Both the position numbers and the translations under genes were made by a program. Positions 1 through 28,361 of a stretch of DNA of 31,353 nt are shown here, piece after piece. Source of the DNA: a virus; the IMG/VR virus record IMGVR_UViG_3300045256_000087, positions 1 through 31,353 of that record; one strand, 5' to 3'. The first letter of the stretch is position 1, and every line of letters begins with the position of its first letter. The notes beneath the pieces were generated by a model. The model did no database searches. It saw only the letters and a program-made list of their open reading frames with translations, and was not told the DNA's origin.

Positions 1-29
1 TTGACTTTTTCCAAGTTTTGTGTTATAAT
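1..29 (+). promoter_or_regulatory. sigma70-type promoter P1
   Basis: A -35 box TTGACT (1-6) and a -10 box TATAAT (24-29) are separated by exactly 17 bp. It serves the first run of genes (69-1298). The -35 box begins at the first base of the window, so upstream context is unseen. Confidence 0.85.
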
Positions 30-2275: not shown

Positions 2276-2552
2276 ATGCCAAAAGACAACAATGATCCAT
2301 TCGGAATTCTTCACAAACGTTACCCGGTAAAGGGGCGTAAGTTCCGCACCTATGACCCAGCAAAGAGTTACGCAATAGAACATTTACGTAATAGAACATT
2401 TACGCAATAGAACATTTACGTAATAGAACATTTACGCAATAGAACAGTCACACATTCACCCCGACCAAACGTATCACGTCGTTGACCTTGACAATGGCAA
2501 CCGAATAGTTGCTATCTATCAAGGCGGTCACAAGTTAACTGGCGGATACTAA
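2276..2552 (+). pseudogene. small gene broken by a 16-bp tandem repeat expansion
   Basis: An AAGGCGG site precedes ATG 2276. The frame reads 32 residues up to Y-A-I-E and then enters a tandem array of 16-bp units in which it stops (TAG 2408-2410). Past the array a coding-like segment resumes in another frame (about 2427-2552, with H-V-V-D-L-D-N-G and V-A-I-Y-Q-G-G) up to TAA. Removing exactly four units (64 bp) joins both halves through the repeat, Y-A-I-E-Q-S-H, into one 70-aa frame (213 nt). The simplest reading is slippage expansion in a formerly intact gene; a switchable locus is possible but less likely, because extra units introduce stops. Function unknown. Confidence 0.65.
2369..2446 (+). 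repeat. 16-bp tandem repeat, 4.9 copies
   Basis: Units TACGYAATAGAACATT at 2369, 2385, 2401 and 2417, with a partial fifth from 2433. The fifth base alternates C/T, giving a 32-bp higher-order period. It lies inside the broken 70-aa gene. Confidence 0.95.
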
Positions 2553-5473: not shown

Positions 5474-5500
5474 ACCTCGGCCTTTAGGGCCAAGGTCTAA
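5470..5500 (+). terminator. stop-codon hairpin
   Basis: TTAGACCT/AGGTCTAA (5470-5477 with 5493-5500) plus inner GGCC/GGCC pairs and a 5-nt loop. The stop codon TAG lies in the 5' arm. A weak A/T run follows. Confidence 0.6.
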
Positions 5501-5505
5501 TAACT

Positions 5506-5899: not shown

Positions 5900-5960
5900 C
5901 ATTTCTGACACTGTTCCGGCTCATAATATATTTACGATGTTTAGTAACTTTTCATGAATA

Positions 5961-6021
5961 ATTTAGACGTATTTACTGAATTCTATTATTCTATAATAGA
6001 ATTCAGTAAATACGTCTAAAT
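5961..6021 (+). repeat. 29-bp perfect inverted repeat, 3-nt loop
   Basis: The left arm 5961-5989 is an exact reverse complement of 5993-6021, with a TCT loop. Arms are about 75 per cent A+T. There is no U-tract typical of a terminator. It is the longest perfect dyad I saw in the window and should extrude as a cruciform or form a long RNA hairpin. Confidence 0.95.
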
Positions 6022-6176
6022 CATAATTGTAATTCGTCGAACGCTGTAATTCGAGGAGTAAAACCGCCCAACGTAATACAAAAAATTATTTGATATTTGT
6101 TAAACGCATGTCAAACGTAATATACTGACGATGGATGCATGTACAACGTCTAAACGAGATTTCTTACGATGGGGCG

Positions 6177-14674: not shown

Positions 14675-14703
14675 TTGCGCTAATCTAACATTTAGTGTAT
14701 AAT
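14675..14703 (+). promoter_or_regulatory. promoter of the IS, within its left-end hairpin
   Basis: TTGCGC (14675-14680), 17-bp spacer, TATAAT (14698-14703). Transcription would start at about 14710, on the GTG that may begin tnpA. Confidence 0.6.
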
Positions 14704-14709
14704 CTCTTT

Positions 14710-15108
14710 GTGGAAAAAGAGATTAAATCAAACCACAATATTGTTTACACCTGCCGGTATCACGTGGTTTTCTGCCCCAAATACCGACGCAGTGTTTTGA
14801 CTCCGCCAATAGACGAACGGCTCAAAACTATTATACTCGAAACTATCGAGAAATGGGGTCAAGAGTTCATCGAAATGGAAGTTATGCCTGACCACGTTCA
14901 TTTGCTGGTTGGGTGTGACCCTCAGTTCGGTATTCACCGGCTGGTTAAATACATCAAAGGCACGAGTAGCTATTTGCTTAGAAAAGAATTTCCCGAACTC
15001 AAAAGCCGTCTGCCTAGTCTGTGGACTAATTCTTACGCTGTGTTTACCACTGGTGGTGTTACTATCGAAGTAATGAAACGATATATCGAAAGCCAAAAAG
15101 GTAAGTAG
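14710..15108 (+). CDS. tnpA: TnpA, Y1 HUH transposase
   Basis: Single-strand transposase of the IS200/IS605 family. The HUH motif is in M-P-D-H-V-H-L-L-V (His about residues 62 and 64) and the catalytic Tyr in V-M-K-R-Y-I-E-S-Q (about residue 125); Y-H-V-V-F-C-P-K-Y-R-R near residue 17 is a family signature. Length (132 aa from GTG 14710) is normal. A GTG at 14695 is in frame, but it lies upstream of the predicted transcription start; starting at 14710 would make a leaderless mRNA. It excises and inserts the element by recognising the end hairpins and the TTAC target. tnpB follows 3 nt after the stop. Confidence 0.9.
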   Translation: MEKEIKSNHNIVYTCRYHVVFCPKYRRSVLTPPIDERLKTIILETIEKWGQEFIEMEVMPDHVHLLVGCDPQFGIHRLVKYIKGTSSYLLRKEFPELKSRLPSLWTNSYAVFTTGGVTIEVMKRYIESQKGK

Positions 15109-15111
15109 TAA

Positions 15112-16248
15112 GTGAAAAGTCGTAAAGCTTACAAGTTCAGGCTTATGCCAACTAGAAGCCAAGAAGCTAAACTCTTGGCTGTGTTGGATTTGAACCGTGA
15201 GCTTTACAACGCCGCCCTTCAAGAGCGTCGGGATGCCTACCGAATGTGCGGCAAATCTATCAACTATATAGACCAGGCTAATCAACTGCCCGAAATTAAA
15301 GAGGTGCGGCCAGACCTACAAGGAGTTTACTCCCAGATATTGCAAGACACCTTGCGCCGCCTGGACAAGACCTGGGGGGCGTTCTATGAGCGCGTGAAGA
15401 AGGGTGTCAAAGCAGGCTTTCCTCGTTTCAAAGCCCGCGAACGTTATACCAGCTTCACCTATCCTCAATCGGGTTGGTCGCTTCACAATGACCGTTTGAC
15501 CCTCTCCAAGCTTGGTACGTTCAAACTTAAATTGCACCGGGCGGTCGCTGGTAAAGTTAAAACCTGTAGTATTGTCAAAGATGGCCTTAGTTGGTTCGCT
15601 GTCTTTTCGGTCGAATACGAATTTGAACCACCAGTACATGAGGGTGAAGCAGTTGGAATCGATGTTGGTCTTGAACATTTTGCTAATTTGTCGAGTGGCG
15701 AACAAGTTGAAAACCCGCGCTTTTTTCGTAAGAGCGAAAAACATCTGGCGAAGGTGCAACGGAAGCTGGCAAAGGTTCGTCATCTGCCCCGAACTAGCCC
15801 CGTCAAACAAAAGGCTAAGCGGGCAGTTAGCCGGGCTTTTAGGCGTATTCGTAATCAACGTCTTGACTTCGCGCATAAACTCTCCAGACAGCTTGCTCAT
15901 ACCTACAGCTTAATTGCCCTCGAAGATTTGAACGTCAAAGGGCTGGCAGCTTCCCGGCTTGCCAAGTCTGTGAACGATGCCGGATGGTCGCTTTTCATCA
16001 ATCTACTTGCCTACAAAGTGGAAGAAACTGGTAGCAAGCTGGTAAAAGTAGACCCCTGTATGACCTCACAGACCTGTCCCCAGTGCGGCAATATCCACAA
16101 AAAGGAACTTTCCCAGCGGTGGCATTCCTGCCCATGTGGGTGTGAAATGCACCGAGACGAAGCTGCCGCCCGTGTAATACTCAGTCGTGGATTAGCGACT
16201 GCCGGTAAACAATCCGTAGATGCCCCGCCCTTTAGGGCTGGGGTCTAA
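15112..16248 (+). CDS. tnpB: TnpB, RNA-guided RuvC-type nuclease
   Basis: 378 aa with a GTG start close behind tnpA. The RuvC catalytic residues are visible: Asp184 in V-G-I-D-V-G-L-E, Glu271 in L-I-A-L-E-D-L-N-V-K and Asp349 in H-R-D-E-A-A-A. The zinc finger (C-P-Q-C near 322-325, C-P-C-G-C near 340-344) lies between the last two. TnpB proteins cut DNA guided by an RNA made from the element's right end and help the transposon persist after excision. The protein looks full length and active. Its 3' end overlaps the right-end hairpin, where such guide RNAs are encoded. Confidence 0.92.
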   Translation: MKSRKAYKFRLMPTRSQEAKLLAVLDLNRELYNAALQERRDAYRMCGKSINYIDQANQLPEIKEVRPDLQGVYSQILQDTLRRLDKTWGAFYERVKKGVKAGFPRFKARERYTSFTYPQSGWSLHNDRLTLSKLGTFKLKLHRAVAGKVKTCSIVKDGLSWFAVFSVEYEFEPPVHEGEAVGIDVGLEHFANLSSGEQVENPRFFRKSEKHLAKVQRKLAKVRHLPRTSPVKQKAKRAVSRAFRRIRNQRLDFAHKLSRQLAHTYSLIALEDLNVKGLAASRLAKSVNDAGWSLFINLLAYKVEETGSKLVKVDPCMTSQTCPQCGNIHKKELSQRWHSCPCGCEMHRDEAAARVILSRGLATAGKQSVDAPPFRAGV

Positions 16249-16250
16249 TC

Positions 16251-16504
16251 ACTGGGATAAAATAATCTCAATCGAAACTGAAGCTGCGATATATGATCAC
16301 GGTGACTATGACCCTAAGAACGGTTACTCAAAAGACCGCGGAGTTAGAATACACACTGTGGGTATAGCAGATGATGGTGATGGTAATAAAGTCTCGCTGG
16401 CTTTCGAGTTTGTCGGGTCTGGCGTTGATTGGCTTCGCCAGCACCTGCGCTGGTTAACTGGTTCAACTAATCAATCCGCTTACCAAGAATATAGCACTAA
16501 ATAA
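16251..16504 (+). pseudogene. 3' part of the IS-split gene
   Basis: It continues the frame of 14555-14645 after the element: H-W-D-K-I-I-S-I-E-T-E-A-A-I-Y-D, then D-R-G-V-R-I-H-T-V-G-I and S-L-A-F-E-F-V-G-S. It is open upstream into the IS right end but without a proper start there. Well preserved, so the insertion looks recent. Not recognised; the strand pattern suggests a small mixed alpha/beta domain. Stop at 16504, 1 nt before the helicase ATG. Confidence 0.7.
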
Positions 16505-23351: not shown

Positions 23352-23834
23352 ATGAGTAACACTGACACAGCCGAAGTCGTAATTAACTTTGCCGATGTTG
23401 ATGAGAATAATAATCTCCCGGAAGGCGTTTACCTCGCCAAATGCGTCAAGGCTACTTACGCCACTAGTAAGAGTTCCGGCCAGCCGAAGATTGAGACACA
23501 GTACGAAATTGTCGAAGGGCCTTACGCAAAACGTAGGCTCTATGACAATATCAGCCTTAGTACTGCCGCACTTTGGCGTAGCAAGAAAACTTTCTTGGCT
23601 CACGGGGCTACAGTGGAGCAGATGTCCAAGATTCAGTATGATGCCGCAACTGGTTCGCTTCGCCAGCCGGACTTGTTTGCCAATTGCGTAACTATCGTGG
23701 TCAAACACGAAGATTATAACGGGCAGACTCGTGCGCGTATTGGTGACATAGCTCCCGAGGCCGAGTTTGACCGCATTGCCGATGAGTATGACAGTGCTAA
23801 GGCGTCCGTTGGAGAATCCGGATTATGGAGCTAA
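23352..23834 (+). CDS. DUF669 SSB-like protein (160 aa)
   Basis: AGAGGAG lies before ATG 23352. The pattern L-P-E-G-V-Y-L-A-K-C-V-K-A, then K-S-S-G-Q-P-K-I and R-L-Y-D-N-I-S-L-S-T-A-A-L-W matches DUF669, a phage family regularly found next to Sak4-type ATPases and thought to bind single-stranded DNA. The C-terminal region is acidic and ends in G-L-W-S, comparable to the acidic tails with which SSB proteins recruit partners. Overlaps queD by 10 nt. Confidence 0.75.
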   Translation: MSNTDTAEVVINFADVDENNNLPEGVYLAKCVKATYATSKSSGQPKIETQYEIVEGPYAKRRLYDNISLSTAALWRSKKTFLAHGATVEQMSKIQYDAATGSLRQPDLFANCVTIVVKHEDYNGQTRARIGDIAPEAEFDRIADEYDSAKASVGESGLWS

Positions 23835-24262
23835 ATAACTTGCCCGCCCCAATGATGCGTGCCTTGCAGTCCATTAATCATCCGCAGAACCGAGCAGTTA
23901 TTACCAAAACTTTTAAGTTCGAGTCGGCGCACCAATTACCGAATCACAGAGGCAAGTGTGCTAATCTTCACGGACACTCTTATGTGATGCAGGTGGCGGT
24001 GCATGGTTATATCAAGTCGGGGTCAAGTACCTCGGATGAGGGCATGGTAATGGACTTTGGGGATTTAGATGCTATTGTTGCGCCAATGGTAGCGGACTAT
24101 TTTGATCACAAGCTACTTAACATTATGTTCGAAGTCCCCACGGCCGAGAATATAGCAACCTTCTGGGCGGGCTATATTAAGGAGATGTTGCCTACAGGCA
24201 TCTACCTTGCCAGCGTCAAACTGTGGGAAACTGATAAATGTTTCGTGGAAGTGGAGGGCTAA
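23825..24262 (+). CDS. queD: QueD, 6-carboxytetrahydropterin synthase
   Basis: Converts dihydroneopterin triphosphate to 6-carboxytetrahydropterin, step 2 of preQ0 synthesis. Zinc ligands His36 (E-S-A-H-Q-L), His49 and His51 (N-L-H-G-H-S-Y), nearby catalytic Cys45, M-V-M-D-F-G-D-L, D-H-K-L-L-N and P-T-A-E-N-I-A are all in place. Length 145 aa is a little above typical because of about 25 extra N-terminal residues. GGAG (23811-23814) is the probable ribosome binding site. Directly followed by queE. Confidence 0.92.
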   Translation: MELNNLPAPMMRALQSINHPQNRAVITKTFKFESAHQLPNHRGKCANLHGHSYVMQVAVHGYIKSGSSTSDEGMVMDFGDLDAIVAPMVADYFDHKLLNIMFEVPTAENIATFWAGYIKEMLPTGIYLASVKLWETDKCFVEVEG

Positions 24263-25015
24263 ATGAGCTTACGCGATTATCCCGTAGCCGAGATATTTGG
24301 ACCGACAATTCAAGGGGAAGGTCGCTTACTGGGAATGCCTTGCTACTTTATTCGCTTCGGTGGCTGTACTTATAAGTGCTCCTGGTGCGATAGTATGCAT
24401 GCCGTTGACCCAGAAAAGGTTCGCCAGCTTCCACGAATGAATAATGATGCGATAATGTCTCGATTATTGGAACTAAGCGGTTATGCAGAATGGGTTATCC
24501 TTTCCGGAGGTAATCCATCGATGTTAGACCTATCGGACCTTATTGATCGCCTGCACGAAAAGGGCTTTAAGGTCGCAATTGAAATGCAAGGCGACAAGGC
24601 TCCTTGGTGGCTGGCTAAACTAGACCATATTACCATCAGTCCCAAAGGACCTTCTGCTCTCCTACCCGACAATCAATATCTCGCTCAGACAGCTAATGTA
24701 ACCAAATGCTTGCGCGCAGCCAGCGACGTACGTTCGGACCCTGCATTAGCCTTATTTGCGAAACGGAACTGTGATTTAAAGGTTCCTATCTTCACACCGG
24801 AAGACTACCAATTCGCTCGGAATATGCACGCTAGTTTTCCGGAGTATCAAATGTACCTCACTGTTGGCAACAACCTCGGTGAGGATGATACTGCGGCGTT
24901 GTTGAATAAACTAAAGTGGCTCGTAGAGACCACTGTTGAGGACTCCATGATGAAGGATGTGCAGGTAATCCCTCAGTTACACGTTCTCATCTGGGGCAAT
25001 GATATAGGGCACTAA
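24263..25015 (+). CDS. queE: QueE, 7-carboxy-7-deazaguanine synthase
   Basis: Radical SAM enzyme that contracts the ring of 6-carboxytetrahydropterin to 7-carboxy-7-deazaguanine. The C-x3-C-x2-C cluster motif is at Cys35, Cys39, Cys42 ([11 protein letters not shown]). [11 protein letters not shown] (10-20) is the family N-terminus, and L-S-G-G-N-P is the glycine-rich SAM motif (about residues 79-84). Length 250 aa is typical. The start is the ATG directly after the queD stop, behind GGAGG. Confidence 0.93.
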
Positions 25016-25017
25016 AT

Positions 25018-25674
25018 ATGGCACATACTAACACCTCTCAACTGTTACAAAGAGTATTGCCGGGTATCTTCGACGCTGATGGCGGAGATATGCCGGAGAC
25101 ACCTCTACCAACTGAACAGCAATCCTTGGTACTCATTGCTGATTCAGTCCTCGTCATTTTAGAGCAAATCGGTGAAAGGCCTGAACGTCCTGGTTTAATA
25201 GAGACGCCAATGCGTGCGGCCAAAGCTTGGATGGAATTAACGGCTGGTTATATTGCCGATGTTCCGGAGCTGTTTAAAACTTTTGAGCCAGTAGAACGTA
25301 ACCAAATGGTGACAGTCCGCAATATCCGTTTTCACAGTCTGTGCGAGCATCATCTACTTCCGTTCTACGGTGTCGCTGATATTGGGTATATCCCCAATGG
25401 CAAGATTTTGGGTCTCAGTAAGTTTGCTCGTTTGGTCGATGCTTACGCGCGCCGGCTTCAAGTCCAGGAGCATCTGACCCAGCAAATCTTGAAAGCTATT
25501 GAAGTCGGGCTACAGCCGCATGGGGTTATTGTCAAAACTCGTGCCGTCCATATGTGTATGGAAATGCGAGGCATCAATGCCCAAGGTGCTGCAACTACCG
25601 TAGCGCAATACTCCGGTGCCTTCGAACAGAACCCGACCCTCGTTTCGGAGTTCTACAGTGCCATAGGGAGCTAA
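25018..25674 (+). CDS. folE: FolE, GTP cyclohydrolase I
   Basis: Makes dihydroneopterin triphosphate from GTP, the entry step to preQ0. [11 protein letters not shown] (Cys109, His111, His112) and H-M-C-M-E-M-R-G (Cys180) are the zinc and active-site motifs; [10 protein letters not shown] and R-L-Q-V-Q-E also match. 218 aa, typical. Placed between queE and the amidotransferase, giving the phage its own supply of the precursor in place of host FolE. Confidence 0.94.
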
Positions 25675-25678
25675 CATT

Positions 25679-26353
25679 ATGTGTGGTCTATTCGGCATCA
25701 CGGGCTTTAACTCACGTGACCCTTTCCACAAAGCCTTTTGGGAAGCTCTCGTGAAAGCCAACAGTCCTCGGGGGACTCAAGCTCTGGGCGTGTTATCTAT
25801 CGGCAGCGGAACAATGCGTGTGACTAAAAAGCTCCGTGACGAAGGGCTATATTTTGAGCCCGGCGACGACCACACAATCCTTGGACACTTCCGACAACCA
25901 ACAGGTGGTTGGAGTAAATCCAAGGATGACGTGCATCCTTTCCAAAAGGGTGCAGACCGCTTTCTCGCTCACAATGGGATACTCATCAACCACGAGAGTT
26001 ACCCGCAGCATAAACTTCTTTCTACATCTGTAGACTCAGGATATATACTTGGAGCCATTTCGCATCAGCTCGACAATGGTTATCAGCCTGCCGCAGCTAT
26101 TGCCAACACCGTTACCATGTTTGAGGGACAGCAAGCCTGTTGGCTTTATCTCTTTGGCAGGGGCTTATATCTGTGGCGAGTAATGTCACCGTTGTACGTA
26201 TATCATCGTGAGTTTATGTCAGCGTTCAGCAGCATTCCAATTCCCGGATACGATTTTTGGGCATTGGAGCAGGGACAAGTTTGGCGTATGAGCGAGTACG
26301 GTTTTGAACACTTACTCGATTTTAAGTTCCATAGTATTTACGGGAAGGTATAA
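25679..26353 (+). CDS. stand-alone class II glutamine amidotransferase
   Basis: N-terminal nucleophile Cys2 (M-C-G-L-F-G-I), S-P-R-G-T-Q-A-L-G (about 29-37), G-H-F-R-Q-P-T-G (74-81) and A-H-N-G-I-L-I-N (98-105) are the class II glutaminase motifs that release ammonia from glutamine. 224 aa; it has only the glutaminase domain. In enterobacterial phage 9g a similar domain is fused to QueC (Gat-QueC) and is linked to deoxyarchaeosine (dG+). Here it is a separate gene 6 nt before queC, so I infer it feeds ammonia to QueC or to a preQ0 derivative. It could also serve another amidation. Confidence 0.85.
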   Translation: MCGLFGITGFNSRDPFHKAFWEALVKANSPRGTQALGVLSIGSGTMRVTKKLRDEGLYFEPGDDHTILGHFRQPTGGWSKSKDDVHPFQKGADRFLAHNGILINHESYPQHKLLSTSVDSGYILGAISHQLDNGYQPAAAIANTVTMFEGQQACWLYLFGRGLYLWRVMSPLYVYHREFMSAFSSIPIPGYDFWALEQGQVWRMSEYGFEHLLDFKFHSIYGKV

Positions 26354-26359
26354 CACATT

Positions 26360-27028
26360 ATGAAGGCTATAGTCATTTGTAGCGGTGGAGCCGACTCAAC
26401 TGTCGCGCTCCATAAAGTTTGGTCCGAGGCTGATGATTTACATGTCCTCGCTTTTAATTACGGACAACGCCACGTCAAGGAACTTGAGTGTGTCAAGGAG
26501 CAATGCTCAACTCTCGCCTTGTCCGAGAAGCTGCATATTGTTGACTTGCGTAGTGTTATTCCGGGGCAGAGTACCGCACTAGTCAATGGCAGGATTGCCG
26601 TGCCGCACGTACAGCAAGTTCTAGGCGACCCGCAGCCGTTTACTTACGTACCCAATCGTAACATGATCTTCCTTTCGGTTGCTGCTGGCTGGGCGGAAGA
26701 TTTGGGATTTGACACCGTTGCTTACGGGGCACAGCGTCATGACATTTACGGCTACTGGGATACGACCATTATGTTCGTAGAGGCTGTGCAGAGTGTACTA
26801 GAACTCAATCGTAAGAATCCTATCCAGCTGTATGCCCCTTTAATTGGCTACTCCAAGACTGACGTTATCCGGGAAGGTCTACGCCTCGGAATTGACTTCT
26901 CGCTGACTTGGTCTTGCTATAACGGACAGGAAGAAGCCTGTGGTATTTGCCCCACTTGTACCGAACGCCTTAACGCTTTTCGCGAACTAGGCCGGGTAGA
27001 CCCTATCCCTTATCAAGTAGCTCAATAA
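26360..27028 (+). CDS. queC: QueC, 7-cyano-7-deazaguanine (preQ0) synthase
   Basis: ATP-dependent conversion of 7-carboxy-7-deazaguanine to preQ0. PP-loop S-G-G-A-D-S-T (residues 8-14), Y-V-P-N-R-N (96-101), and the zinc site Cys186, Cys194, Cys197, Cys200 (C-Y-N-G-Q ... C-G-I-C-P-T-C) are present. 222 aa, full length. GGAAGG lies before ATG 26360. It ends the P13 operon; promoter P14 follows. Confidence 0.94.
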   Translation: MKAIVICSGGADSTVALHKVWSEADDLHVLAFNYGQRHVKELECVKEQCSTLALSEKLHIVDLRSVIPGQSTALVNGRIAVPHVQQVLGDPQPFTYVPNRNMIFLSVAAGWAEDLGFDTVAYGAQRHDIYGYWDTTIMFVEAVQSVLELNRKNPIQLYAPLIGYSKTDVIREGLRLGIDFSLTWSCYNGQEEACGICPTCTERLNAFRELGRVDPIPYQVAQ

Positions 27029-27037
27029 ATTTCGGCG

Positions 27038-27066
27038 TTGCGTATTCGCTGGCCGCATACGATAAT
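27038..27066 (+). promoter_or_regulatory. promoter P14
   Basis: TTGCGT (27038-27043), 17-bp spacer, GATAAT (27061-27066). It drives the dpdA, polymerase and HNH genes, with an untranslated leader of about 40 nt. Confidence 0.7.
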
Positions 27067-27114
27067 ATAAGTATCGCAGTGAGCGCAGCGTTGTAGCATA
27101 CATGGAGTATCGTT

Positions 27115-27516
27115 ATGGATGTTTCGGTTGACAAATTGTCACAACTTATGGCTCATCAGACAGCCGAATTCAACAATGAGTTCATAAAAGAATATTTGGC
27201 TGCTTTAGAACGGGGTAAGGAAGTTTTTGCCCAACGCAGTAGCGAAGGACGGAATAAATTCCTGGGGCCTATTTCTATGGCACCGTTCGGCATGATGAGC
27301 TGGGTTACTATTATCTACCAAAAGACCCTTCGCCTGGTGGGCAATGTCCTCGCTGATAATATGGTGAAAGCAGTAGAAGAGTGCGAGGACATTATCAACT
27401 ATTGTGCGATGGCGATTGCGTGGCGCAAGATGCAAGACAAATACCAATCCGACCCTGGTCCAGGGTTCGCAACAGATGTAACAGAGATGTTGCAAAAATA
27501 TGGAGGGCAGAAATGA
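27115..27516 (+). CDS. DUF1599/Nmad1-like protein (133 aa)
   Basis: GGAG precedes ATG 27115. The pattern R-x-K-F-L-G then M-M-S-W-V-T-I-I-Y-Q-K-T-L-R-L (about 61-75) and V-E-E-C-E-D-I-I-N-Y-C-A-M-A (87-100) resembles DUF1599, also called nucleotide modification associated domain 1, where a D-x-x-N-Y-A motif is common. The gene sits between queC and dpdA with an ATGA overlap to the latter, which supports a role in nucleotide or base modification. Its reaction is unknown. The match is by eye and could be wrong. Confidence 0.45.
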   Translation: MDVSVDKLSQLMAHQTAEFNNEFIKEYLAALERGKEVFAQRSSEGRNKFLGPISMAPFGMMSWVTIIYQKTLRLVGNVLADNMVKAVEECEDIINYCAMAIAWRKMQDKYQSDPGPGFATDVTEMLQKYGGQK

Positions 27517-28361
27517 CTTACCCAATTCTCATTCCCCCGATTGCTCACATGGATATCCTTTACCGCGAGCCGATGGTTATGCTATTGGCACATATGTTTG
27601 AAGACCCGATCTATTCGGCCAAGGCAGCTTTAATTCGTCCCAAAAATAAACGTTGTCATATCATTTTAGATAACGGGGCGCACGAGTTGGGAGCCAGCAT
27701 TGCCATAACCAATATTCTCGAAATAGCTAAGAACGTGGATGCTAACGAGATTATTTTGCCCGACGTAATTAAAAACTGTGAAGCCACTGTCCTCGCATCA
27801 ATAGATGGTGCTGAGGCTGTCTGTGACTTCTGGTATCTGACCAACTGGAAGCCTTCGCACCTTATGGTCGTCCCGCAGGGTTCTACTCCCGCTGAATGGG
27901 AATATTGTCTCCGGACGCTTATTACTAAAGTGACTCAAGTATTCCAGCGGCGTCACGTGGAACCGTGTGAAATTGTTATCGGTGTACCCAAGCATTTTGA
28001 GTTTTTTAATGGCGGGCGATTAGCCCTTCTGCAAAGCATGGTCTATAGGTTCCATATGCAAGGGCATCAGGTTCACTGTCTTGGTATTGAAAGCAACTTG
28101 TTTGACTATCAGATCATCGGGGACAAATGCACTTGGGTCCGCAGCACCGATTCCGCCAAACCATTCCGTTACACTATTGCCGGCTGGGATTTATCCACAG
28201 GGCACCTGCCCCCTAATAAATATGGTGACCAGGAGGATTACTTCCACCTACATGTGCCCGATAACGCGTTAAACCTAATGGCCCGAAATGAGATGGTCTA
28301 TCGTGCCGTAGTAGGCGGCGTATGGAGTGGCGGATATGCGTATAGTAATCATAGTCGATAA
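27513..28361 (+). CDS. dpdA: DpdA-like DNA 7-deazaguanine transglycosylase
   Basis: Related to tRNA-guanine transglycosylases; phage DpdA inserts 7-deazaguanine bases into DNA. I-I-L-D-N-G-A-H-E-L-G (Asp53) and I-I-L-P-D-V (Asp84) correspond to catalytic and substrate-binding Asp regions, followed by V-V-P-Q-G, I-G-V-P-K, L-G-I-E-S-N and R-S-T-D-S-A, the order expected for this family. 282 aa from ATG 27513; an upstream in-frame stretch from 27381 overlaps the previous gene and is rejected. The zinc site of tRNA enzymes is absent, as in DpdA. It stands directly after the preQ0 genes. Confidence 0.82.
   Translation: MTYPILIPPIAHMDILYREPMVMLLAHMFEDPIYSAKAALIRPKNKRCHIILDNGAHELGASIAITNILEIAKNVDANEIILPDVIKNCEATVLASIDGAEAVCDFWYLTNWKPSHLMVVPQGSTPAEWEYCLRTLITKVTQVFQRRHVEPCEIVIGVPKHFEFFNGGRLALLQSMVYRFHMQGHQVHCLGIESNLFDYQIIGDKCTWVRSTDSAKPFRYTIAGWDLSTGHLPPNKYGDQEDYFHLHVPDNALNLMARNEMVYRAVVGGVWSGGYAYSNHSR

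What the first reader, a model, noticed from the sequence alone, without database searches (positions are those of the whole stretch)
23825..28361. Complete preQ0-in-DNA pathway with a separate glutaminase, predicting an archaeosine-type base
The sequence shows queD, queE, folE, a class II amidotransferase, queC and a dpdA-like gene. From work on phage 9g, GAT fused to QueC goes with deoxyarchaeosine (dG+), while phages without it carry preQ0 or other forms. Here GAT and QueC are separate adjacent genes. Inference: this phage converts preQ0 to dG+ or another amidated base with a split enzyme.
Basis: partly seen in the sequence, partly recalled or inferred. Interest (0 to 1): 0.75.

Follow-up and report, generated by a model that had tools for sequence, protein, structure and literature searches.

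The report
Phage preQ0 cluster with split glutaminase-QueC

Summary
queD, queE, folE, a stand-alone class II glutaminase (GAT), queC and a dpdA-type transglycosylase gene lie in one operon-like row at 23825-28361. The dpdA gene starts at 27513, and a small ORF sits between queC and dpdA.

The archaeosine inference is not favoured. (i) The window's GAT groups (99/96 support) with bacterial GATs inside queuosine operons. Grouping it with the fused Gat-QueC proteins that make dG+ is rejected (p-AU 0.0008). (ii) Its QueC keeps the canonical preQ0-synthase motifs and none of the fused-clade signatures. (iii) A separate GAT beside QueC is common: 78 of 80 related viral contigs, and about 50 reference phages including KVP40 and nt-1. 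In 28 of those contigs a preQ0 reductase (QueF) lies in the same locus. (iv) nt-1 DNA holds mainly dPreQ0, and nt-1 has its own ArcS.

Best reading: a two-subunit, glutamine-dependent preQ0 synthase feeding a DpdA of the Campylobacter-phage CP220 type, giving dPreQ0 or a derivative tailored by genes outside this fragment. Not shown here: the chemistry, any GAT-QueC contact, and the base in the DNA. Split archaeosine synthesis remains possible (about 0.2).

The parts
23825..24262 (+). queD, 6-carboxytetrahydropterin synthase (145 aa)
   Evidence: PF01242 1.2e-32; TIGR03367 93.5 bits over cut-off 89.25; motifs FESAH, CANLHGH, DHKLLN
24263..25015 (+). [quoted passage not shown] subtilis type (250 aa)
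   Evidence: TIGR03365 233.9 bits over cut-off 206.1; CTYKCSWC radical-SAM cluster motif
25018..25674 (+). folE, GTP cyclohydrolase I (218 aa)
   Evidence: PF01227 6.5e-65; CEHH and CMEMRG motifs
25679..26353 (+). GAT: stand-alone class II (Ntn) glutamine amidotransferase/glutaminase (224 aa)
   Evidence: Profile matches GlmS/PurF glutaminase domains 5e-15; N-terminal MCG, HNG, VDS, R31-G32 and GHFR conserved; AF2 pLDDT 94.5, GlmS Z 24.0; groups 99/96 with GATs of bacterial queuosine operons
26360..27028 (+). queC, canonical-motif QueC, YWDT variant (222 aa)
   Evidence: PF06508 3e-58; SGGADS, YGQRHVKE, VPNRN, YWDT, C-x7-CGICPTC; about 50-54% identical to Chloroflexota QueC
27115..27516 (+). 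133-aa ORF between queC and dpdA, function unknown; part of the gene row only by position
   Evidence: phrog_1485 (unknown function) 7.6e-4; HMUD2 E 0.08 is not significant
27513..28361 (+). dpdA of the CP220/immuto type (called DpdA3 in the literature, from memory): DNA guanine transglycosylase (282 aa)
   Evidence: tblastn to MA9V-3 (1e-5) and Bacillus BSP7/BSTP phages (3e-3); same family as CP220 and immuto; conserved LDNG(A), H188-x-x-G, STDS; AF2 model has TGT fold, Z 16.7; DpdA 7ui4 Z 16.1

Best explanation
The row is a phage 7-deazaguanine DNA-modification cluster. FolE, QueD and QueE make 7-carboxy-7-deazaguanine (CDG) from GTP. QueC, an ATP-dependent and ammonia-using enzyme, turns CDG through the amide ADG into preQ0. 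The separate GAT hydrolyses glutamine and supplies the ammonia, so GAT plus QueC act as a two-subunit, glutamine-dependent preQ0 synthase (compare the split glutaminase/ATP-pyrophosphatase form of GMP synthase). A DpdA of the Campylobacter-phage CP220 type then exchanges DNA guanines for the base. Predicted product: dPreQ0, unless a tailoring enzyme lies outside this 31-kb fragment. Shown here: gene identities, intact active-site motifs, folds of GAT and DpdA, phylogeny. Inferred: ammonia transfer from GAT to QueC, preQ0 as product, insertion into DNA, anti-restriction role.
For: GAT tree: the window groups with four bacterial GATs (three Chloroflexota, one Methylococcaceae MAG) at 99/96; window plus fused Gat-QueC rejected, p-AU 0.0008. 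Those bacterial GATs directly follow queC, with queD and queE in the same operons; queF is directly upstream in L112 and L122 and in a further Anaerolineae-class genome. All four genomes encode QueA (PF02547), the queuosine-specific enzyme, and archaeosine is limited to Archaea (PMC5485725), so their GAT is unlikely to make G+. QueC motifs are canonical: YGQRHVKE, VPNRN, Y132, K166, Y187 and Zn cysteines, matching the residues shown essential or conserved in PMC13329287; all ten fused proteins have YG[CSA]xA, EWVP, PDN or GDN, and HCGxCGPC instead. QueC tree: fused clade 100, window outside it. Of 80 viral contigs 78 have a separate GAT near QueC, and 28 of these also have a QueF with NADPH motif and catalytic Cys in the flank. 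pf16 has QueF-QueC-GAT adjacent. The split phage nt-1 has mainly dPreQ0 (232 against 72 dADG and 44 dG+ per million; PMC6884629) and an ArcS match that can explain its trace dG+. No QueF over the cut-off and no ArcS in the window.
Against: QueC is described as using ammonia without a glutaminase partner (PMC13329287), and closely related Chloroflexota QueC operons lack GAT, so a partner is not required. No GAT-QueC contact has been tested. In the window GAT precedes queC, as in the fused protein, whereas all 78 GAT-bearing viral contigs have QueC first. The fused Gat-QueC of 9g shows that a GAT with a QueC domain can make G+. The YPDC motif is altered to YWDT. The record is a fragment, so tailoring genes may be missing.
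Confidence: 0.6

Rival explanations
1. Split archaeosine synthase: GAT delivers ammonia into QueC, which turns preQ0 (or the adenylated amide) into the amidine G+, so the phage DNA carries dG+.
For: Fused Gat-QueC of 9g makes dG+ in E. coli DNA and can also make preQ0 (PMC6884629). GAT and queC are adjacent, in frame, in the order of the fused protein. nt-1, with a split GAT, has traces of dG+ (PMC6884629). No other tailoring enzyme was found in the window.
Against: Both proteins lie outside the fused clades. QueC lacks all fused-clade motif changes. Nearest GATs are in bacterial queuosine operons. Viral split GATs often co-occur with the reductase QueF, which needs preQ0. nt-1 has ArcS.
Confidence: 0.2
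2. The end product is dADG: QueC stops at the amide, and the CP220-type DpdA inserts ADG, possibly at every G.
For: The DpdA family includes CP220 and CPt10, whose dG is fully replaced by dADG (PMC8306585).
Against: CP220 has no GAT match, and its QueC has a changed motif (YGSNHQDKE, FPDC) that the window lacks. The same DpdA family occurs with QueF (immuto, L006, L081) and in MA9V-3 without any QueC match, so it does not fix the base.
Confidence: 0.08
3. The cluster makes preQ0, but a QueF or another tailoring enzyme outside the 31-kb fragment converts it (preQ1 or derivatives).
For: In 28 of 78 GAT-bearing viral loci QueF lies near QueC-GAT. The record is a linear fragment.
Against: In the relatives inspected, where QueF is present in the locus, it sits next to or near queC, and the window has none there.
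Confidence: 0.1

Closest known systems
Phage 9g-type dG+ cluster (FolE, QueD, QueE, fused Gat-QueC, DpdA)
   Same: Same preQ0 pathway enzymes, a class II GAT tied to QueC, a TGT-family DNA transglycosylase, position beside DNA replication genes
   Different: GAT separate and of another clade (p-AU 0.0008); QueC keeps canonical motifs; DpdA of another subfamily (9g DpdA not matched by the A2 profile)
Chloroflexota queuosine operon QueF-QueC-GAT-QueD-QueE
   Same: Closest GAT (35-37% identity) and among the closest QueC (about 50-54%); separate GAT; YWDTT variant of the QueC motif
   Different: Bacterial chromosomes with QueF and QueA; no DpdA found in the flanks; order QueC-GAT
Vibrio phages nt-1 and KVP40 and Pseudomonas phage pf16 (split QueC-GAT, unremarked as far as the held library shows)
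   Same: Separate GAT gene directly after QueC in a preQ0 cluster
   Different: Different GAT clade (nt-1, pf16 tested); QueC first; nt-1 has DpdA2 and ArcS, pf16 has QueF; the CP220-type DpdA was not found in nt-1 or pf16
Campylobacter phage CP220 and Flavobacterium phage immuto (DpdA3-type)
   Same: Same DpdA subfamily and preQ0-pathway genes
   Different: No GAT; CP220 QueC motif diverged (dADG); immuto has QueF
Archaeal GMP synthase with separate GATase subunit (described in PMC13329287)
   Same: Split glutaminase plus ATP-pyrophosphatase: the proposed way of working
   Different: Class I GATase (PF00117), other substrate; an analogy, not a relative

Membership tests
Fused Gat-QueC type archaeosine (dG+) synthase | GAT and QueC in one polypeptide | tested here: not met
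   TAA stop between them, own start and SD-like site
Fused Gat-QueC type archaeosine (dG+) synthase | GAT belongs to the Gat-QueC GAT clade | tested here: not met
   Fused clade 100/99 without the window; AU test p 0.0008
Fused Gat-QueC type archaeosine (dG+) synthase | QueC-domain signature of the fused clade (YG[CSA]xA, EWVP, PDN, CGPC) | tested here: not met
   Window has YGQRH, TYVP, YWDT, CPTC
Fused Gat-QueC type archaeosine (dG+) synthase | Makes dG+ in DNA with DpdA | not testable with these tools
   Needs LC-MS/MS
[quoted passage not shown]
   against PMC13329287
[quoted passage not shown]
   YWDT: Tyr and Asp kept, Pro and Cys changed; the same YWDT/YWDC variant occurs in bacterial QueC, including GAT-bearing queuosine operons
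[quoted passage not shown]
   Delta-queC complementation or in vitro assay needed
Class II (Ntn) glutamine amidotransferase | N-terminal nucleophile Cys and conserved glutamine-site residues | tested here: met
   C2 (Cys1 after Met removal), R31, H98-N99-G100, D119 invariant
Class II (Ntn) glutamine amidotransferase | Glutaminase fold | tested here: met
   GlmS Z 24.0, rmsd 3.0, 215 residues aligned
DpdA / TGT-fold DNA guanine transglycosylase | TGT fold | tested here: met
   TGT Z 16.7 over 239 residues; DpdA 7ui4 Z 16.1 over 227; model pLDDT 74
DpdA / TGT-fold DNA guanine transglycosylase | Conserved Asp residues and the DpdA histidine | tested here: inconclusive
   D53, D84, H188 and D213 are invariant in the family alignment, but their equivalence to 9g and TGT catalytic residues was judged by eye only (hhalign to 9g weak)
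DpdA / TGT-fold DNA guanine transglycosylase | Inserts a 7-deazaguanine base into DNA | not testable with these tools
   Needs expression and LC-MS/MS
preQ0 biosynthesis pathway (FolE, QueD, QueE, QueC) | All four enzymes with catalytic motifs | tested here: met

The most novel reading that the evidence does not exclude
The separate GAT and QueC form a true two-subunit archaeosine (or other amidine) synthase that arose independently of the fused Gat-QueC, from a bacterial queuosine enzyme pair; the same chemistry would then occur widely in phages carrying split GAT-QueC.
Probability: 0.18. Interest if true: 0.7.

Novelty: new variant of a known kind. Interest (0 to 1): 0.45.

Why it matters
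A glutaminase domain tied to QueC has been a marker for archaeosine in phage DNA. If stand-alone GATs instead serve preQ0 synthesis, that marker misleads when GAT is not fused, and base predictions need the QueC motif (YxQxHxxE against YG[CSA]xA) and the GAT clade as well. It also points to a glutamine-dependent, two-protein form of QueC shared by many phages and some Chloroflexota queuosine operons, with a simple test: window QueC should complement E. coli delta-queC for tRNA queuosine, which 9g Gat-QueC does not.

Tried and rejected
Recently broken Gat-QueC fusion: considered because GAT and queC are in frame and only a TAA plus two codons apart; rejected on phylogeny. GAT as part of the phage amidoligase (peptide or cell-wall) systems: BLAST first pointed there, but adding the bacterial GATs resolved the placement, and no amidoligase was seen among the genes of the row. 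Direct pattern searches with the window's GAT, dpdA-like protein and DNA polymerase in viral contigs returned no relatives. Megablast of 21-31 kb in phages gave nothing. The 9g DpdA against the window family by hhalign was weak, so membership rests on fold and on nearer relatives. A read-through GAT+QueC tandem alignment for folding was abandoned because the GAT rows seemed misaligned. The 2023 NAR paper that names DpdA3 is not held, so that name is from memory. Rosebush could not be fetched by its RefSeq number.
Full report
What is there. The window is a 31,353-base virus record, a linear fragment with no end repeats. From 23825 to 28361 on the + strand, almost without gaps, lie queD, queE, folE, a class II glutaminase (GAT), queC, a 133-aa ORF and a dpdA-like gene, followed by a family A DNA polymerase. 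Four of the six named genes are identified by curated models, and the expected motifs of all six are present. GAT and the dpdA-like gene reach no curated Pfam or NCBIfam cut-off, so they were checked separately.

GAT. A profile built from it and its phage relatives matches the glutaminase domains of GlmS and PurF at 5e-15. The N-terminal Cys, R31-G32, H98-N99-G100 and D119 are invariant. The AF2 model (pLDDT 94.5) aligns to GlmS at Z 24.0 over 215 residues.

The dpdA-like gene. It starts at 27513. It does not match 9g DpdA well but belongs with proteins of Bacillus BSP7, Chryseobacterium MA9V-3, Campylobacter CP220 and Flavobacterium immuto. To my recollection this is the subfamily called DpdA3. 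CP220 and CPt10, in this family, have all dG replaced by dADG (PMC8306585). The AF2 model (pLDDT 74) has a TGT fold: TGT at Z 16.7, and the solved DNA preQ0 insertase DpdA 7ui4 at Z 16.1.

Is a separate GAT unusual? No. A QueC-based scan of viral contigs kept 80 loci; 78 have a separate GAT gene, always downstream of queC and within 200 bases in 62. The scan is biased to this QueC type, and many contigs are near-duplicates. Of the two without GAT, L045's contig ends before the place where its near-identical relative L047 has GAT, and L006 has a unimodular QueF beside queC. In reference phages a GAT follows queC in about 50 records: KVP40, nt-1 and relatives, and pf16. In the held papers searched I found no mention of this gene.

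Does it make archaeosine? Four lines argue against it. First, phylogeny: with bacterial relatives included, the window's GAT groups at 99/96 with GATs of three Chloroflexota MAGs and one Methylococcaceae MAG; ten fused Gat-QueC GATs form their own clade (100/99), and forcing the window into it is rejected at p-AU 0.0008. In QueC trees the fused clade is likewise separate. Second, motifs: a 2026 mutagenesis study defines canonical QueC by SGGxDS, YxQxHxxE, VPxRN, YPDC, a second essential Tyr and Zn cysteines (PMC13329287). The window has all but YPDC, which reads YWDT as in bacterial QueC including GAT-bearing queuosine operons. All ten fused proteins have YG[CSA]xA in place of YxQxH, EWVP, PDN or GDN, and CGPC. 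Third, context: the bacterial GATs lie inside queuosine operons (queC-GAT with queD and queE, and queF upstream in L112, L122 and the G186 genome), and the four genomes found by the scan all encode the queuosine-specific QueA, while archaeosine is limited to Archaea (PMC5485725). In viruses 28 of the 78 GAT loci have a QueF with the NADPH motif ESKS[LV]KLY and catalytic Cys near QueC. A reductase that consumes preQ0 makes sense if QueC plus GAT make preQ0. Fourth, data: nt-1, with the split arrangement, carries 232 dPreQ0, 72 dADG and 44 dG+ per million nucleotides (PMC6884629), and its genome has an ArcS match that can account for the dG+.

How it most likely works. FolE, QueD and QueE make CDG. 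QueC, fed with ammonia from glutamine by GAT, makes preQ0. The DpdA exchanges it for guanine in DNA. In Chloroflexota the GAT is rare (3 of 199 genomes of the class at a strict cut-off, two of them already known from the scan) and close relatives lack it, which fits an accessory ammonia supplier rather than an essential subunit. A phage that modifies much of its DNA may gain more from it than a bacterium making tRNA queuosine (inference). The gene pair may derive from a Chloroflexota-like queuosine operon: QueC about 50-54% and GAT 35-37% identical. The host is not known.

Limits. No biochemistry was done. The record is incomplete: no QueF over the cut-off and no ArcS lie in the 31 kb, but they could lie outside. 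The CP220-type DpdA family occurs with and without GAT, with QueF, and in MA9V-3 without a QueC match, so it does not decide the base. The window's gene order (GAT before queC) differs from the bacterial and viral relatives and equals that of the fused protein, which I cannot explain. The archaeosine reading therefore keeps about 0.2.

Noticed in passing
window 14695-16253: IS200/IS605-type element: TnpA (PF01797) and TnpB (PF01385, PF07282), with a palindrome CCCCGCCCTTTAGGGCTGGGG at 16223-16243; an 81% copy of that end lies at 5475-5505.
   Followed up: partly
window 1-29, 1305, 2189, 3561, 4055, 4764, 5141, 8429, 10460, 13375, 18874, 20353: About a dozen copies of a 35-39 nt promoter-like element ending in a TATAAT-type box (some with TTGAC/TTGCC at -35 spacing); none listed inside the queD-dpdA row.
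   Followed up: no
window 2347-2454: Several copies of a 16-nt tandem repeat (AACATTTACGYAATAG).
   Followed up: no
window 5958-6024: Near-perfect 32-nt inverted repeat with a 3-nt loop (97% complementary).
   Followed up: no
window 27115-27516: 133-aa ORF between queC and dpdA without a clear family; phrog_1485 (unknown function) 7.6e-4.
   Followed up: partly
L046 5974-6717 and relatives (L003, L010, L026, L047 and others): Many viral QueC proteins with a separate GAT have lost most or all of the C-terminal Zn cysteines (for example SDANSPSSALR in place of CGxCPxC), although the Zn site is a QueC hallmark.
   Followed up: partly
L087 (Chryseobacterium phage MA9V-3): queE, folE and a CP220-type dpdA but no QueC match in the genome, suggesting insertion of a pre-QueC base such as CDG.
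   Followed up: partly
L091 7001-7609 (Vibrio phage nt-1 ORF392): The GAT gene after queC in nt-1, KVP40 and relatives is annotated as hypothetical, and I found no mention of it in the passages read of the held paper on nt-1 DNA modification.
   Followed up: partly
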